Positions 9,234 through 16,448 of a DNA stretch of 51,961 bases are shown one piece after another. The position numbers and the translations under genes were made by a program. The stretch's first letter is position 1. Each line of letters opens with the position of its first letter. Source of the stretch: Alphaproteobacteria bacterium (lineage in GTDB: Bacteria > Pseudomonadota > Alphaproteobacteria > Geminicoccales > Geminicoccaceae); assembly GCA_027045875.1 (NCBI GenBank), contig JALUAG010000056.1, positions 1 through 51,961 of the forward strand. Direction: 5' to 3'. The notes below the pieces were generated by a model. It saw only the letters and a list, made by a program, of their open reading frames with translations, searched no databases and had not been told where the DNA came from.

Positions 9234-10292
9234 ATGGCGCGCATCCTGGTCCGGGACATCAAGAAGACCTTCGGCAAGTTCGTGGCGCTGAAATCGGTCT
9301 CCATGGAGGTGGCCGACGGCGAGTTCACCGTGCTCCTCGGCCCCTCGGGCTGCGGCAAGACCACGCTGCTGCGCATCATCGCCGGCCTCGAGACCGCCGA
9401 CCGGGGCGAGGTGTGGATCGGCGAGCGGCGCATCGACCGTCTGCCGCCGCGCGCCCGCAACATCGCCATGGTGTTCCAGAACTACGCCGTCTTCCCCCAC
9501 ATGACGGTGTTCGACAACATCGCCTTCGGGCTCCGCATGCAGAAGCGCGGCAGCGAGGAGGAGATCCGCCGCACCGTCGAATGGGCGGCCGAGCTCGTCC
9601 ACATCGAGAGCCAGCTCGAGAAATACACGGGCCAGCTCTCGGGCGGCCAGCGCCAGCGGGTGGCGGTGGCCCGGGCCCTCGCCGTGCGCCCCCAGGTGCT
9701 GCTGATGGACGAGCCCCTGTCCAATCTCGACGCCCTGCTGCGCCTCGAGATGCGGGCCGAGCTCAAGACCATCCTCCGGGAATGCGCCACCACCACCATC
9801 TACGTCACCCACGACCAGGTGGAGGCGATGAGCCTCGCCGACCGCATCGCCATCATGCACGGCGGCGAGATCGAACAGTACGACACCCCCCTCGAGATCT
9901 ACCGCAACCCCGCCACCCTGTTCTGCGGCGGCTTCATCGGCAGCCCGCCGATGAACTTCCTGGAGGCGGAGCGGGTGGCGCCGGGCCGCTACCGGGTCGG
10001 CGGTCTCGAGCTCGAGGGGCCACGCGATGCCGGGCCGAAGCTCCTCCTCGGGATCCGCCCCGAGGATCTGGAGCCGGTGGCCGACGGCGGGGCCGCTCTC
10101 GCCGGCAGCGTCCTGGTGGTGGAACCCCTGGGCTCCCATCTCCTGGCCACCCTGCGCCTCGACGGTCGGCTGCTGCGCTTCGCCGGCGACGCCGATCTGC
10201 CGCTGCACCCGGGTGAGACGCTGCGGCTGCGGCCACGCGCCGACCGGCTGCGCTGGTTCGATCCCGAGAGCGAACGCGCGGTCCGGTCATGA
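9234..10292 (+). CDS. ABC transporter ATP-binding protein (MalK/UgpC family)
   Basis: A 352-residue ATPase. Walker A is GPSGCGKTT, the Q-loop VFQNYAVFPHMTV, the signature LSGGQRQR, Walker B LLMDEP and the switch histidine is in YVTHDQ. After about residue 235 a TOBE/OB regulatory domain follows (LLLGIRPEDLEPV), as in MalK and UgpC. It energises the two permeases upstream. The stop overlaps the ATG of the GH63 gene as ATGA, tying uptake to intracellular hydrolysis. Confidence 0.93.
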   Translation: MARILVRDIKKTFGKFVALKSVSMEVADGEFTVLLGPSGCGKTTLLRIIAGLETADRGEVWIGERRIDRLPPRARNIAMVFQNYAVFPHMTVFDNIAFGLRMQKRGSEEEIRRTVEWAAELVHIESQLEKYTGQLSGGQRQRVAVARALAVRPQVLLMDEPLSNLDALLRLEMRAELKTILRECATTTIYVTHDQVEAMSLADRIAIMHGGEIEQYDTPLEIYRNPATLFCGGFIGSPPMNFLEAERVAPGRYRVGGLELEGPRDAGPKLLLGIRPEDLEPVADGGAALAGSVLVVEPLGSHLLATLRLDGRLLRFAGDADLPLHPGETLRLRPRADRLRWFDPESERAVRS

Positions 10293-11605
10293 ACGGGTGC
10301 GGCGGGGAGGGCCTGCGCGGGCAGGCGATGGCCGTGCTGCGCGCCAACGACCGCGGGGGCTACACGGTCCCGAGCGCCGGCCTCTACCCCTTCCAGTGGA
10401 ACTGGGACAGCTGCCTCGTGGCGCTCGGCTGGGCGCGGTTCGACGAGGCCCGGGCGTGGCGGGAGATCGAGACCCTGTTCGCCGCCCAATGGCCGGACGG
10501 CATGGTGCCCCACATCGTCTTCCATCGCGACGATCCCGCCTACTTCCCGGGGCCGGCGGTGTGGGCCACCGGGCGCCTGCCGGCGAGCTCGGGCATCACC
10601 CAGCCGCCGGTGGCGGCGAGCTGCGTGCGCTGGATGCTGGAGGGCGCTCGCGACCGGGAGCGGGCGCTGGCGGCGGTGCGGCGGCTGTTCCCGAAGCTCC
10701 TCGCCTGGCACGCATGGTTCCATTCCGCCCGCGATCCCGAAGGGCGCGGCTGGGTGGTCACCGTCCACCCCTGGGAGACGGGGATGGACAACAGCCCGGC
10801 CTGGGACGCCCCCCTGGCGGCGGTCACGCCGCCGCCCGACCTCGCCCCCTACGAGCGCCGCGATCTGACCCATGTCGACGCCGCCCAGCGGCCGACGCGG
10901 GCGGAATACGACCGCTACATGACGCTCGTGCAGCTGTTCCGCGAGCTCGCCTACGATCCGGCGGCGATGGTCGCCCGCTCCCCCTTCCTGGTGGTCGATC
11001 CCGCCACCAACGCCATCCTGCTGCGCGCCGACCGGGACCTCGCCGTCCTCGCCGACAGGCTCGGGGAGCGGGACGCCCGCCGCCGCATCGAGGGCTGGAT
11101 CGCCCGCGCCGAGGCGGCGTTGCCGGACCTCCTGGCGGAGCCCGCAAGCGGCCTCTGGAGGGCCTTCGACCTGCGGTGCGGGCGGCCCGTCGAGGCCCGC
11201 ACCCACGCCGGGTTCCTGGCGCTCTACGCCGGTCTCGGCGATGCCCGTCTGGCCGGGCTCGCGCGCGCCTGGGCCGGGGAGACGCGCTACGCCCTTTCGA
11301 GCGTGCCGGCGGCGGACCCCGCCTTCGACCGGCGGCGCTACTGGCGCGGACCGGTGTGGCCGGTGGCCAATTTCCTCATCGCCCGCGGCTTCGCCGAACG
11401 GGGACTGACGGATCTGGCCGATCGGCTGCGGCGGGACACGGCGGCGCTGATCGCGGGGGAGGGGTTCCGGGAGTATTTCGATCCCCTGGACGGGACCGGT
11501 CTCGGCGGCACCCGTTTCAGCTGGACGGCGGCGGTGTGGCTGGCCTGGATCGATCAACCCGAACGCGATCGAGGGCCGAACGAACCGTCCGACCCTCTGA
11601 AATAA
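10289..11605 (+). CDS. GH63-type glucosylglycerate/mannosylglycerate hydrolase-like protein
   Basis: A 438-residue cytoplasmic (alpha/alpha)6-barrel-type protein with no signal peptide. Diagnostic segments are FQWNWDSCLVALGW near residue 36, WPDGMVPHIVF and HPWETGMDNSPAWD near residue 155. A late segment (YWRGPVWPVANFLIARG) is also typical of bacterial GH63 enzymes that cleave glucosylglycerate or mannosylglycerate. Length fits these enzymes (about 420-450 residues). As the last gene of the ABC operon it would hydrolyse the imported osmolyte to sugar plus glycerate or a similar aglycone. Which of the two substrates is used cannot be read from the sequence. Confidence 0.82.
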   Translation: MNGCGGEGLRGQAMAVLRANDRGGYTVPSAGLYPFQWNWDSCLVALGWARFDEARAWREIETLFAAQWPDGMVPHIVFHRDDPAYFPGPAVWATGRLPASSGITQPPVAASCVRWMLEGARDRERALAAVRRLFPKLLAWHAWFHSARDPEGRGWVVTVHPWETGMDNSPAWDAPLAAVTPPPDLAPYERRDLTHVDAAQRPTRAEYDRYMTLVQLFRELAYDPAAMVARSPFLVVDPATNAILLRADRDLAVLADRLGERDARRRIEGWIARAEAALPDLLAEPASGLWRAFDLRCGRPVEARTHAGFLALYAGLGDARLAGLARAWAGETRYALSSVPAADPAFDRRRYWRGPVWPVANFLIARGFAERGLTDLADRLRRDTAALIAGEGFREYFDPLDGTGLGGTRFSWTAAVWLAWIDQPERDRGPNEPSDPLK

Positions 11606-12104: not shown

Positions 12105-12740
12105 TCAGGGGCGCGGGGGCGCCAGCGGCACGGCGGTGCCGATCATGCAGTCGCGGGTCACGAGGGCGGCCAGCGCCTCCTCGTCCAGCCCCTCGGTGCC
12201 CGCGGGCCGCAGCGGCAGCACCATGTAGCGGAGCTCGGCGGTGCTGTCGTGGACCTCGATCCGCACCTCGTCCGGGAGCAGGAGGCCGAACTCGGCCAGC
12301 ACCGCCCGCGGCTCGCGCACCACCCGCGAGCGGTAGGCCCGCGACTTGTACCAGTCGGGTGCCGCCCCGAGGAGATAGCGCGGGTAACAGGAACAGAGGG
12401 TGCAGACGATGACGTTGTGGAGATCGGGGCGGTTCTCGACCGCACGGATGGGGATGGCGCCGGCGTCGATGCCGAGCTCGGCGGCGGCCGCGTTCACATC
12501 CTCGAGGACCCGCGCCCTGAAGGCGGGATCGCACCAGGCCCGGGCCACCAGCCGGGCGCCCTGGGCGGGGGTGGCGGCGTCGATGGTCTCGAGGGTGCGC
12601 CGCAGCTCGTCGGCGGTGATGACACCCTTGGCCAGCAGCAGATCGGCCACCGCGTCGGTGAGCGCCATGTGCCAGCTGTAGGGCCCGTCCTCGATGTCGG
12701 GCTGCTTGGGCGGATGGGGATGCGAATGGCCGCTGCTCAC
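12105..12740 (-). CDS. nitrile hydratase alpha / thiocyanate hydrolase gamma-type subunit (cobalt type)
   Basis: A 211-residue metal-binding catalytic subunit. The claw motif is VCTLCSC followed by YPRYLLG; threonine in the second position is the cobalt-type signature, whereas iron enzymes have serine. Further family segments are DWYKSRAYRSRVVREPRAVLAEFG and ELRYMVLPLRPAGTEG. Two of the three motif cysteines are normally oxidised after translation. The GTG start overlaps the stop of the upstream beta-C gene as GTGA. Two small genes upstream correspond to the halves of a beta subunit, as in thiocyanate hydrolase and three-subunit nitrile hydratases. Whether nitriles or thiocyanate are the substrate is open. 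Confidence 0.9.
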   Translation of the reverse strand: MSSGHSHPHPPKQPDIEDGPYSWHMALTDAVADLLLAKGVITADELRRTLETIDAATPAQGARLVARAWCDPAFRARVLEDVNAAAAELGIDAGAIPIRAVENRPDLHNVIVCTLCSCYPRYLLGAAPDWYKSRAYRSRVVREPRAVLAEFGLLLPDEVRIEVHDSTAELRYMVLPLRPAGTEGLDEEALAALVTRDCMIGTAVPLAPPRP

Positions 12741-13039
12741 GCGCGCGTCTCCAGGGGCTCGAGCCAGTGTTCGCACAGATCGGCCACCACCGTGTCCTCG
12801 TGCGGATCGCCGTCCTCGGGCCACAGCTCGCGGCGGGCGAAGCGCACCCGGTAGACGGCGACCGGCGGCCGGTCGGTGCGGCCGTAGGCGAGATCCTCGG
12901 GGTTGGGCATGGGGCCGACGACCTGCAGGATCTCGCCGCGATGGCCGCGCAGGTAGAAGGGCGTGCGCACGTGACCGGGGGGATGCCAGGCGCGCACGCG
13001 CACCCGCTGCCCCGGCCGGAAGATCGGTCCGGCGGTCAC
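12737..13039 (-). CDS. nitrile hydratase beta subunit, C-terminal half as separate protein
   Basis: A 100-residue protein matching the SH3-like C-terminal domain of nitrile hydratase beta subunits: FRPGQRVRVR, HPPGHVRTPFYLRGHRGEI, VYRVRFARRELWPED, and VVADLCEHWLEP at the end. In ordinary enzymes this is fused behind the helical N-terminal half. Here a stop and a GTG start overlap (GTGA) at the junction. The split equals that between the small subunits of thiocyanate hydrolase (ScnB/ScnA) and of toyocamycin-type nitrile hydratase. Confidence 0.85.
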   Translation of the reverse strand: MTAGPIFRPGQRVRVRAWHPPGHVRTPFYLRGHRGEILQVVGPMPNPEDLAYGRTDRPPVAVYRVRFARRELWPEDGDPHEDTVVADLCEHWLEPLETRA

Positions 13040-13344
13040 GCCGCCGCCTCGCGGCGCGCCCGTGCCGCCTCGATGGCGGCGCCCAGCTCGGCCACCTCGA
13101 GCACCCCCTTCTCCAGCAGCACGTTGGAGATGGAGGAGATCCAGCGCTCGAAATAGGAGAGCTCGTCGTAGGCGCCGGGACCCAGATCCTCGATGCCGCG
13201 GCGCAGCTCGTCGAGGGTCATCACTCCCTTGCCCACCAGGAGACGCAGGATGGCGTCCACCTTCTTCTCCCAGGGCGCGTGGGCGTGCTCGACGGGCTCC
13301 ACCGGGCCCGCGGGCAGCCCGCCCATGTCGTGATGCCGGCGCAC
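13036..13344 (-). CDS. nitrile hydratase beta subunit, N-terminal half as separate protein
   Basis: A 102-residue protein matching the helical N-terminal half of beta subunits: HDMGGLPAGPV, WEKKVDAILRLLVGKGVMTLDELRRGIE, YFERWISSISNVLLEKGVL. I chose the GTG at 13344 because GGAGG lies five bases upstream and it includes the conserved HDMGG. It is the first gene of the three-gene minus-strand operon. No separate metallochaperone gene (P47K type or beta-like activator) is seen in the window; one may lie elsewhere or this small protein might double in that role, which is speculation. Confidence 0.82.
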   Translation of the reverse strand: MRRHHDMGGLPAGPVEPVEHAHAPWEKKVDAILRLLVGKGVMTLDELRRGIEDLGPGAYDELSYFERWISSISNVLLEKGVLEVAELGAAIEAARARREAAA

Positions 13345-13658: not shown

Positions 13659-14690
13659 ATGTTCGCATCCCGCCGGCAAACCCTCGCGATGGTCTGCGCG
13701 GGTCTCGCCCTCGCCGCCCATCCGGCGGTGGCCGCCCAGCAGGAGGTCAACGTCTACAACGCCCGCCACTACGGCACCGACGAGATCCTCTGGCGGATGT
13801 TCACCGACCGGACGGGGATCCGGGTCAACGTCATCGAGGGCAAGCACGACGAGCTCATCCAGCGGCTGATCGCCGAAGGCCCCAACAGCCCGGCCGACGT
13901 GTTCATCACCACCGATGCCGGCAGGCTCGCCTTCGCCGCCGCCAAGGGCCTCTTCCGACCGGTCCGCTCGCCGGCCCTGGAGGCGACGGTGCCGGCCCAT
14001 CTCCGCCATCCCGACGGGCTCTGGTGGGGGCTCTCGATGCGGGCGCGCATCTTCGCCTATGCGAAGGACCGGGTCCGGCCCTCCGAGATGTCGACCTACG
14101 AGGATCTGGCCGACCCCAGGTGGCGCGGCCGCATCCTCGTGCGCAGCAGCAGCAACATCTACAACATCAGCCTCGTGGCCTCGATCCTGGCCGCCAACGG
14201 ACCCGAGAAGACCCTCGCCTGGTGCCGGGGGCTCGTCGCCAACATGGCGCGCCCGCCGCAGGGCGGCGACACCGACCAGATCAGGGCGGTGGCCGCCGGG
14301 GTCGGCGATCTGGCCATCGTCAACACCTACTATTTCGGCCGCCTCGCCGCCTCCGAGCGGGAGGCCGACCGGGCGGTGGTAAAGGGTCTCGGGGTGTTCT
14401 TCCCCAACCAGCAGGATCGCGGCACCCATGTGAACATCAGTGGCGCCGCGGTGCTCGAGAACGCGCCCAATCCGGAGCACGCGGTGGCGCTGCTCGAGTT
14501 CCTGGCCACGCCCGAGGCGCAGCGCTATTTCGCCGACATCGCCTTCGAATATCCGGTCAACCCCGAGGTGAAGCCCCATCCGGTGCTGCAGGCCTGGGGA
14601 CCGTTCAAGCAGGACACCCTGAACGCGGCCGCCTACGCCGAGCGGGCGGACGAGGCGACCCGGATCATGGATCGCTGCGGCTGGCGCTGA
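13659..14690 (+). CDS. ferric iron ABC transporter periplasmic binding protein (FbpA/FutA family)
   Basis: A 343-residue exported protein with a signal peptide cleaved near VAAQQE. Mature start EVNVYNARHYGTDEILWRMFTDRTGI, then ADVFITTDAGRLAFAAAKGLF, WWGLSMRARIFAYAKD and IVNTYYFGRL. The paired tyrosines in NTYYFG are the iron ligands of this family. Late segments HVNISGAAVLENAPN and FLATPEAQRYFAD are typical. It faces a convergent permease gene, and a shared terminator lies between them. No ATPase gene for the system is present here. Confidence 0.92.
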   Translation: MFASRRQTLAMVCAGLALAAHPAVAAQQEVNVYNARHYGTDEILWRMFTDRTGIRVNVIEGKHDELIQRLIAEGPNSPADVFITTDAGRLAFAAAKGLFRPVRSPALEATVPAHLRHPDGLWWGLSMRARIFAYAKDRVRPSEMSTYEDLADPRWRGRILVRSSSNIYNISLVASILAANGPEKTLAWCRGLVANMARPPQGGDTDQIRAVAAGVGDLAIVNTYYFGRLAASEREADRAVVKGLGVFFPNQQDRGTHVNISGAAVLENAPNPEHAVALLEFLATPEAQRYFADIAFEYPVNPEVKPHPVLQAWGPFKQDTLNAAAYAERADEATRIMDRCGWR

Positions 14691-14714
14691 GCCCGCGGGG
14701 CGCTTCAACGGAGG

Positions 14715-14739
14715 AGGGGCCGCCCGGCGGGCGGCCCCT
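14715..14739. terminator. bidirectional intrinsic terminator between convergent iron-transport genes
   Basis: Stem AGGGGCCGCCC with GGGCGGCCCCT, 11 bp, and a 3-base loop GGC. It lies 25 bases after the binding-protein stop and 21 bases from the stop of the convergent permease. T-runs are short, as is common in GC-rich genomes. Confidence 0.7.
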
Positions 14740-14759
14740 TCACGTTCCCGGACGGACGT

Positions 14760-16448
14760 TCAGGAGAGGGTGGGGCCGCGGCGCCTTTCCGTCATGCGGC
14801 AGAGCATGATCACCGGCAGGAGGCCGGCGGCGGCGATCAGCAGCGAGGGCAGGGCGGCGCCGTCGAGGCGCTCGGTGGTGGCGAGGCGGTAGGCCTCCAC
14901 CGCCAGGGTGTCGAAATTGAAGGGGCGGAGGATGAGGGTCGCCGGCAGCTCCTTCATCACGTCCACGAAGGTCAGCAGCAGGGCGCTCACCAGCGCCGGG
15001 CGCAGCAGCGGGAAGTCGATGCGCCGGAACACCTCGAGCGGCCGATAGCCGAGGGTGCGGGCGGCATCCTCGAGGTTCTCGCCGATCTTGGCGAACCCCG
15101 CCTCGAGCGGGCTGTAGGCGACGGCGAAGAAGCGCACCAGATAGCCGTAGAGGAGGGCGATCAGGGTGCCGCCGATCAAGAGCCCGCGATACTCGAACAG
15201 GCCGGCGAGCAGATTGTCCAGCGTGCCCACCACGATCAGGATGCCGACGCCGATCACCGCCCCGGGCACGGCATAGCCGAGGGTGGCGAAGCGCACGAGC
15301 GCCGCCGCCAGCGGGCCGCGGTCCCGCCGCGCGGTGTAGAGCGCCACCACCGCCGTGACGGTGAGCAGCAGGGCGGCCAACAGGCCGAGGAGGACGGTGT
15401 TCCCGACGAGCTGGGCGAGGCGGGGCGCCGAGGGGGTGGCGTCGCTGGTCACCGCCATCGCCAGCAGTCCCGCCGCCGGCAGCAGGAAGCCGAAGGCGAG
15501 CGGCAGGGCGCAGGCGAGGGTGGCGAGCCAGGCCCGCGGACCCCGCAGGCGCGGCAGCCGCTTGCGGTAGATGTGGGCGGTGCGGGCGGCAAAGCGGGCG
15601 CGACCGCGGAGCAGCCGCTCGCCGGCCAGCACGGCGAAGACGAACAGCAGCAGCACCGAGGAGAGCTGGGCCGCGGCGACGGGGCTGCCGAGCCCGTACC
15701 AGGCACGATAGATGCCGGTGGTGAAGGTGCGCACGCCGAAGAAGGAGACGGCGCCGAAATCGGCCAGCGTCTCCATCAGCACGAAGGCGATGCCGGCGGC
15801 CACCGCGGGACGGGCGAGGGGCAGCCCGACCCGCCGGAAGGCGCCCCAGCCGGTGCAGCCCAGGGTGCGGCTGACCTCGAGGGCGCACTGCGACTGTTCG
15901 ACGAAGGCGGAGCGGGCGAGGGCGTAGACGTAGGGGTAGAGGGCCGTGGTGAGCACGAACACGGCCCCGCCCAGGGAACGGATCTCGGGGAACCAGTAAT
16001 CGCGCACGCTCCAGCCCGTGAGCCCGCGCAGCGCGGTCTGCACGGGGCCCGTGACCTGCAGGAAGTCGGTGTAGGCGTAGGCCAGCACATAGGCCGGCAT
16101 GGCGAGCGGCAGGAACAGCGCCCAGGCGAAGATCTTCCGGCCCGGAAAGCGGTACATGGTGACGAGCCAGGCGGTGCCGGCGCCGAGGATGCCGGTGCCG
16201 AGCCCGACGCCCACCACGAGCCACAGGCTGTTCCAGACGTATTCGAAGAGGACGGTATCGACGAGATGCGCCCACAGCCCGTCGCTGGGCATGAGCACGA
16301 AGCCGAACACCGCCACCACCGGGGCGGCCACCACCAGCGACAGGAGGAGGCTCGGCAGCAGGCGGAGGATGCGCGAAGCCGGGAGGTGATGGCGACCGCC
16401 GCGGGCGAGGAGCCGGGGCCTGTCCTGTGCGAGTTCCGCTGTCGCCAT
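14760..16448 (-). CDS. iron ABC transporter permease (FbpB/SfuB family, tandem permease)
   Basis: A 562-residue protein with two fused permease halves and about twelve membrane segments, beginning at LRLLPSLLLSLVVAAPVVAVFGFVL. Each half has an EAA loop: QCALEVSRTLGCTGWGAFRRVGLPLARPA near residues 190-215, and LEDAARTLGYRPLEVFRRIDFPLLRPA in the C-terminal part. This double layout is typical of ferric-iron permeases. It converges on the matching binding protein rather than forming an operon with it, which is an unusual arrangement. Confidence 0.9.
   Translation of the reverse strand: MATAELAQDRPRLLARGGRHHLPASRILRLLPSLLLSLVVAAPVVAVFGFVLMPSDGLWAHLVDTVLFEYVWNSLWLVVGVGLGTGILGAGTAWLVTMYRFPGRKIFAWALFLPLAMPAYVLAYAYTDFLQVTGPVQTALRGLTGWSVRDYWFPEIRSLGGAVFVLTTALYPYVYALARSAFVEQSQCALEVSRTLGCTGWGAFRRVGLPLARPAVAAGIAFVLMETLADFGAVSFFGVRTFTTGIYRAWYGLGSPVAAAQLSSVLLLFVFAVLAGERLLRGRARFAARTAHIYRKRLPRLRGPRAWLATLACALPLAFGFLLPAAGLLAMAVTSDATPSAPRLAQLVGNTVLLGLLAALLLTVTAVVALYTARRDRGPLAAALVRFATLGYAVPGAVIGVGILIVVGTLDNLLAGLFEYRGLLIGGTLIALLYGYLVRFFAVAYSPLEAGFAKIGENLEDAARTLGYRPLEVFRRIDFPLLRPALVSALLLTFVDVMKELPATLILRPFNFDTLAVEAYRLATTERLDGAALPSLLIAAAGLLPVIMLCRMTERRRGPTLS

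What the first reader, a model, noticed from the sequence alone, without database searches (positions are those of the whole stretch)
12105..13344. Cobalt-type nitrile hydratase/thiocyanate hydrolase with a split beta subunit
Three genes, each joined by a GTGA overlap, encode beta-N, beta-C and the metal subunit. This is the order of scnB-scnA-scnC and of three-subunit nitrile hydratases, but the two small proteins (102 and 100 residues) are shorter than I recall for the ScnB/ScnA subunits. It could be a compact thiocyanate hydrolase or a specialised nitrile hydratase.
Basis: partly seen in the sequence, partly recalled or inferred. Interest (0 to 1): 0.58.

Follow-up and report, generated by a model that had tools for sequence, protein, structure and literature searches.

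The report
Three-part cobalt nitrile hydratase operon
Three small overlapping genes encode what is most likely a cobalt nitrile hydratase whose second subunit is made as two separate proteins, a known enzyme type that here turns out to be an old and conserved arrangement rather than a recently broken gene.

Summary
On the minus strand, 13344-12105, three genes overlap by GTGA and encode the N half of the nitrile hydratase (NHase) beta subunit (102 aa), its C half (100 aa) and the alpha subunit (211 aa, claw CTLCSC). It is the only such set found in the genome.

Best reading: a three-subunit Co-type NHase of the AnhD-AnhE-AnhA kind, characterised in Streptomyces canus (PMC7329996), where the N-half protein doubles as maturation chaperone. 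By family score it is not a thiocyanate hydrolase (207 bits, cut-off 291), but it also narrowly misses the NHase-alpha cut-off (244 against 250).

The split is old: all 22 close family homologues (window included) have it. In a 101-row tree one 100/100 branch divides 51 split rows and one fused thiocyanate hydrolase from 47 fused rows and two secondary splits. Split loci mostly carry an Arg signature shared with thiocyanate hydrolase and have no activator gene nearby; fused ones have Trp at the alpha site and usually an activator. The reciprocal swaps at that site (NHase W116R, thiocyanate hydrolase R136W) are already solved structures, so the Arg does not by itself mean thiocyanate.

The member is new, the kind known; the physiological substrate is open.

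The parts
13036..13344 (-). betaN gene, 102 aa: N-terminal half of NHase beta (AnhD-like); carries R48 (beta-Arg position, role recalled), R49 and R67
   Evidence: PF21006 3.8e-21; alignments
12737..13039 (-). betaC gene, 100 aa: C-terminal half of NHase beta (AnhE-like); carries the second invariant Arg (R26 in P0002 numbering, which counts one codon before the start)
   Evidence: PF02211 1.1e-22
12105..12740 (-). alpha gene, 211 aa: metal subunit (AnhA-like)
   Evidence: PF02979 5.9e-77; predicted fold matches NHase alpha first, Foldseek E 4.3e-22
12378..12404 (-). metal claw C113-T-L-C-S-C118-Y-P-R121; R121 is the position of P. thermophila NHase W116 / thiocyanate hydrolase R136
13036..13039 (-). 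GTGA overlap betaN/betaC
   Evidence: sequence
12737..12740 (-). GTGA overlap betaC/alpha
   Evidence: sequence

Best explanation
The three genes make one three-subunit Co(III)-type nitrile hydratase, (betaN-betaC-alpha)2, that hydrates a nitrile or cyano compound to its amide. Alpha binds Co(III) through C113, C116, S117 and C118, two of the cysteines being oxidised; betaN R48 and betaC R26 hold the oxidised cysteines (ligand and Arg roles from general knowledge of NHases). BetaN does double duty: it forms half of beta and, because no separate activator was found in the genome, also acts as the chaperone that helps load cobalt into alpha and swaps alpha into the complex, as AnhD does in Streptomyces canus. 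Shown here: genes, families, claw, conserved arginines, no activator found, place in the split clade. Shown elsewhere in a relative: AnhD's chaperone role and nitrile hydration. Inferred for the window: metal, oxidation, stoichiometry, chaperone role, and that the substrate is a nitrile.
For: Families and claw; fold; one alpha and one NHase_beta_N gene found in the genome; no TIGR03889 activator in G000 or in the 5 family relatives given, while the same search rings in 4 of 4 genomes given as positives; AnhD role and AnhD-AnhE-AnhA order in PMC7329996 (abstract, Introduction, docking section, first part of the Discussion read); window and the Streptomyces three-gene loci L103 and L113 on the same side of a 100/100 branch; TIGR01323 (NHase alpha) outscores TIGR03887 (thiocyanate hydrolase) 244 to 207 bits. 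A natural variant, L089, has betaN and alpha in one open frame and its over-cut-off betaC elsewhere in the genome, in line with betaN and alpha working as a unit.
Against: TIGR01323's curated cut-off is narrowly missed (244.4 against 249.85), and neither beta half alone reaches TIGR03888's. Neither an amidase nor a cobalt transporter is among the genes that I identified beside it; in the genome CbtA was not found and NicO stays below cut-off. The pocket arginines are those of thiocyanate hydrolase. S. canus itself was not in the data; L103 and L113 are only Streptomyces stand-ins, and PMC7329996 says that the S. rimosus three-subunit enzyme matures differently.
Confidence: 0.75

Rival explanations
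1. A compact thiocyanate hydrolase: SCN- to COS and NH3.
For: Split beta; the R121/R49/R67 arginines are all present in T. thioparus thiocyanate hydrolase; thiocyanate hydrolase falls on the same side of both trees.
Against: TIGR03887 207 bits against cut-off 291, while scnC of L112 scores 359; lacks the segment before the claw and the long N-terminal part of ScnB; the Arg also occurs in most of the split clade, Streptomyces L103 and L113 included.
Confidence: 0.07
2. A split-class hydratase whose natural substrate is a small polar or anionic cyano compound (cyanamide, cyanate, N-cyano compounds), not an ordinary organic nitrile.
For: Arg signature R/R/R at alpha 121, betaN 49, betaN 67 in 86 of 112 split-type rows; amidase not among the leading families of the downstream neighbours; relative ScNHase acts on acetamiprid and thiacloprid (PMC7329996, docking section).
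Against: ScNHase also hydrates 'BN' (I read it as benzonitrile), and the pocket inference is from sequence alignment only. R67 is not exclusive: three fused rows dropped from the first count have it (L112, L224, L226), and so does the two-subunit Fe-type enzyme 4fm4.
Confidence: 0.13
3. An ordinary two-subunit NHase broken by a recent nonsense or frameshift event.
For: Secondary splits do exist: L117 and L193 lie inside the fused clade, keep Trp and keep their activator.
Against: Split in all 22 close homologues, codon-constrained halves, 100/100 branch.
Confidence: 0.01

Closest known systems
ScNHase, AnhD-AnhE-AnhA of Streptomyces canus CGMCC 13662 (PMC7329996)
   Same: Three genes in the order betaN-betaC-alpha, no activator gene, Co-type
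   Different: Host lineage; window substrate untested; no direct sequence comparison with S. canus itself
Toyocamycin nitrile hydratase (ToyJ and partners), Streptomyces rimosus
   Same: Three-subunit NHase (as described in PMC7329996)
   Different: Sequence not compared here; works in an antibiotic pathway (recalled); PMC7329996 reports that ToyJ alone is active and matures by itself
Thiocyanate hydrolase, Thiobacillus thioparus (2dd4)
   Same: Split beta, claw CTLCSCYPR, the three pocket arginines, same side of the tree
   Different: Longer subunits (157, 126, 243 aa), extra segments, has an activator gene (PMC7193024 passage); its relative L112 clears TIGR03887
Canonical Co-type NHase (P. 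putida, P. thermophila, G. pallidus)
   Same: Claw ligands, beta arginines, fold
   Different: Single-chain beta, Trp after the claw, dedicated activator gene

Membership tests
Nitrile hydratase superfamily (alpha PF02979, beta PF21006 + PF02211) | All three domains over the curated cut-offs, with the CxLCSC claw | tested here: met
   257.7, 75.7 and 80.8 bits against 27.2, 21.5 and 27.7; CTLCSC
NHase alpha equivalog TIGR01323 | Score over 249.85 bits | tested here: not met
   244.4; two family relatives (244.2, 244.6) also miss it, six other split-type alphas reach 250.6-267.5
NHase beta equivalog TIGR03888 | Score over 152.2 bits | tested here: not met
   75.2 (betaC) and 68.3 (betaN), each covering its own half of the model
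Co-type NHase | CTLCSC rather than CSLCSC; Co(III) in the centre | tested here: inconclusive
   Motif met (the type rule is recalled); the metal needs an experiment
Three-subunit (AnhDEA-type) NHase | betaN and betaC as separate genes in the order N-C-alpha | tested here: met
Three-subunit (AnhDEA-type) NHase | No separate activator gene in the genome | tested here: met
   genome 99.93% complete, 110 contigs
Three-subunit (AnhDEA-type) NHase | betaN acts as chaperone; nitrile hydration | not testable with these tools
   shown for S. canus (PMC7329996)
Thiocyanate hydrolase (TIGR03887) | Gamma subunit over 291.45 bits | tested here: not met
   207.4 bits
Thiocyanate hydrolase | Arg at the gamma-136 position | tested here: met
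   R121; shared by most of the split clade, so not diagnostic

The most novel reading that the evidence does not exclude
Split-beta, activator-less, Arg-pocket enzymes are a separate old class from which thiocyanate hydrolase arose, in which the betaN protein is still both subunit and activator; ordinary NHases either derive from it by beta fusion plus a dedicated activator and a Trp pocket, or the reverse. Its physiological substrate is a small polar or anionic cyano compound rather than an organic nitrile.
Probability: 0.15. Interest if true: 0.6.

Novelty: new member of a known kind. Interest (0 to 1): 0.34.

Why it matters
The natural role of NHases was called unknown (PMC2603476, 2008), and almost all known ones have two subunits and a dedicated activator (PMC7329996, abstract). 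This operon is one of a large split clade in which subunit architecture, lack of a nearby activator and one pocket residue mostly go together, on the same side of the tree as thiocyanate hydrolase. The alpha R/W site has been swapped both ways in solved structures (3vyh NHase W116R, 3vyg thiocyanate hydrolase R136W, titles), so natural Arg NHases such as this one are a ready test of what that residue does to substrate choice.

Tried and rejected
Thiocyanate hydrolase: rejected on family score, missing segments and branch. Recent split: rejected on conservation and tree. Substrate from neighbours led nowhere. In 150 downstream genes (up to two per locus, from 79 of the 80 genome-contig loci, called by a simple GC3 rule of mine) the leading Pfam families were lipid A acyltransferase (16), EamA transporter (15) and DUF1223 (12), which I read as lineage synteny; only 25 of 135 families were printed, the last with 2 members, so amidase has at most 2. 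The 141 upstream genes listed were not scanned as a set; one of two upstream genes in a hand-picked ten is an amidase (L100:6142-7272). In the stretches fetched for the host family (25 loci, 4.8-17.5 kb, some cut by contig ends) the ABC binding protein occurs in 8, the permease in 7, HU in 4 and the glucosylglycerate hydrolase-like gene in 2, so none is tied to the enzyme.

That thiocyanate hydrolase is nested inside the split NHases is not shown: the AU test does not reject all other split rows as one clade without it (p 0.199; the first run, did not finish), and the alpha-only tree gives it other neighbours. A thiocyanate hydrolase search in 299 genomes at E <= 1e-70 rang nowhere, controls included, so it says nothing. 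Promoter and terminator scan: 0 promoter-like sites and one terminator-like site, at chance level. The betaN model is poor (pLDDT 65) and was not used. My first residue tally covered L001-L119 with the window's own locus twice; the counts in the report are.

Full report
What is there. The three genes lie on the minus strand: betaN 13344-13036, betaC 13039-12737, alpha 12740-12105, each start overlapping the previous stop as GTGA. Their Pfam families are the N half of the NHase beta subunit, the C half, and the alpha subunit, all over the curated cut-offs. One alpha and one beta-N gene were found in the genome. The best solved relatives of alpha are NHase alphas (3hht, 203 bits); thiocyanate hydrolase gamma gives 172 bits. 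The AlphaFold model of alpha (pLDDT 80) matches NHase alpha chains first. An HU gene follows at 11904-11632 and a solute-binding protein gene runs divergently from 13659.

Not a recent break. In the host family 27 of 31 genomes have an alpha, 22 of them (window included) at 68-100% identity. All 22 have betaN, betaC and alpha in that order as separate open frames. Codon-position differences against a congener show constraint in all three genes. One (L088) is a second place in the same chromosome as L087 and was dropped. Of the other 79, 76 are split, none has a single-chain beta, and 3 had no separate beta found: L057 and L096 begin at a contig end, and L089 has betaN and alpha in one open frame, with its only over-cut-off betaC elsewhere in that genome. 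By record title the 80 include Alpha-, Beta- and Gammaproteobacteria, Rubrobacter, Streptomyces, Chloroflexi, Binatota, Rokubacteria and SAR324. The closest named ones are an unclassified Pseudomonadota MAG and a Geminicoccaceae MAG; the host's own name was not established.

Two architectures. To avoid selecting by similarity to the window I took every full-length alpha but the window's own from a search of 299 genomes of the phylum: 51 loci, with about 3 kb on each side where the contig allowed; six partial, weak matches were dropped. 44 of 51 have a single-chain beta; 41 of these 44 have a further beta-N-like activator gene within 3.5 kb, and the three without include two Fe-type (CSLCSC) loci. 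Seven are split: six have Arg after the claw and no activator nearby, one (L193) has Trp and an activator. Residue after the claw: fused W 40, H 2, F 2; split R 6, W 1 (Fisher p 3.9e-7 for Arg, 3.1e-5 for no activator, but related sequences are not independent cases). 'No activator' here means none nearby; whole genomes were searched only for the window, 5 family relatives (none found) and 4 positives, two of which (G164, G046) hold both architectures.

Over all sets together (79 genome contigs, 8 plasmid, 25 family and 51 phylum loci): 115 loci without single-chain beta, with R 105, K 4, W 3, I 2, G 1 after the claw, and no second betaN nearby in 112 (exceptions L051, L117, L193); 48 loci with it, W 43, H 2, F 2, R 1, the R being the thiocyanate hydrolase L112. 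Of the 25 family loci 24 are split (23 in order N-C-alpha, 1 in order C-alpha-N), one is fused with Trp and activator.

Tree. 101 rows (51 of 51 phylum loci, 8 of 8 plasmid loci, 12 of 25 family loci, 28 of 80 genome-contig loci, window, solved thiocyanate hydrolase), alpha, betaN and betaC together, 401 columns. One 100/100 branch separates 52 rows (51 split, thiocyanate hydrolase and window among them, and fused L112) from 49 (47 fused, and split L117 and L193). The window sits with its family. The alpha-only quick tree gives the same division. The label needs 4 changes, not one. L117 and L193 are secondary splits that keep Trp and activator, so splitting beta does not by itself bring Arg or the lack of an activator. 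The tree is unrooted; which state is older is open.

Pocket signature. Alpha R121 aligns with R136 of thiocyanate hydrolase gamma and, by motif register, with W116 of P. thermophila NHase; 3vyh and 3vyg are by their titles the structures of the reciprocal swaps (the paper was not seen). For some searches I dropped beforehand the three split rows with Trp (L104, L117, L193) and, the fused rows L112, L224 and L226; L088 was still in. So counted, R121 is R 106, K 4, I 2, G 1 of 113 split rows against W 41, H 2, F 2 of 45 fused; betaN R67 is R in 107 of 110 against 2 of 45; betaN R49 is R in 96 of 110, fused rows having mostly H or F (34 of 45). The dropped rows: L104 W/R/Q, L117 W/H/H, L193 W/W/Q; L112 R/R/R; L224 and L226 W/H/R (positions 121/49/67). 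With the Trp rows put back and L088 out, 86 of 112 are R/R/R; no fused row but L112 has R at 121. Thiocyanate hydrolase has R at all three. R67 also occurs in the two-subunit Fe-type enzyme 4fm4. BetaN R48 and betaC R26, which I recall as the two catalytic beta arginines, are invariant in 110 of 110 and 45 of 45.

How it most likely works. PMC7329996 (abstract, Introduction, docking section and first part of the Discussion read) describes ScNHase: order anhD-anhE-anhA, no activator in the genome; AnhD forms AnhD2A and activates apo-enzyme; AnhE does not act so. It hydrates acetamiprid and thiacloprid, not indole-3-acetonitrile. The window has the same parts and likewise no activator found. I carry the mechanism over by homology; for this operon it is inference. 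The betaN-alpha open frame of L089 fits a lasting betaN-alpha unit but is one case. Seven amidases exist elsewhere in the genome, so an amide could be used further; none is in the operon.

Known or new. The kind is known, the individual is new. Ten literature searches in an open-licence library, seen as listings plus the parts of six papers named here (PMC7329996; PMC2603476 part 1 of 3; passages of PMC7193024, PMC13243292, PMC3323583 and PMC10098168), showed me no statement of the architecture-Arg-activator pattern; most subscription journals are not in it. PMC3323583 set aside a Roseobacter CCS2 beta subunit as 'truncated', and PMC10098168 calls NHases two-subunit enzymes and names three ordinary enzymes as beta queries. 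Both suggest, as my inference, that the split clade is under-described.

Noticed in passing
L089:7596-8627: BetaN and alpha domains in one open frame (Rhodospirillaceae MAG), with the only over-cut-off betaC elsewhere in the genome: a betaN-alpha fusion, the pair that acts as AnhD-AnhA in the S. canus enzyme.
   Followed up: partly
L051:1951-2940: Two tandem betaN genes before betaC and alpha, the only one of the 79 genome-contig loci with a second betaN nearby; could be subunit and activator after duplication.
   Followed up: partly
L117:3735-4405 and L193:2317-3047: Secondary splits of an ordinary beta subunit inside the fused clade, with Trp and activator kept.
   Followed up: yes
L112:3068-3916: Roseomonas plasmid protein with the ScnB and ScnA domains of thiocyanate hydrolase fused in one chain, beside scnC; annotated only as SH3-like.
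   Followed up: partly
L113:4615-5502 and L115:3865-4629: Aquaporin genes directly after split NHase genes in Streptomyces and Rhizobium plasmids, with a nickel/cobalt transporter or CbtA/CbtB genes nearby.
   Followed up: no
L026 / L031 / L142: In one family genome (G011) the alpha gene is read in two overlapping frames: a frameshift or an assembly error.
   Followed up: no
window 13659-16448: Binding protein (+) and double-length permease (-) of an ABC transporter face each other beside the operon, with no ATPase gene between; they occur in 8 and 7 of the 25 stretches fetched for the family.
   Followed up: partly
window 10289-11605: Glucosylglycerate hydrolase-like gene (396 bits, below the cut-off of 550) after what look like ABC transporter genes.
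   Followed up: no
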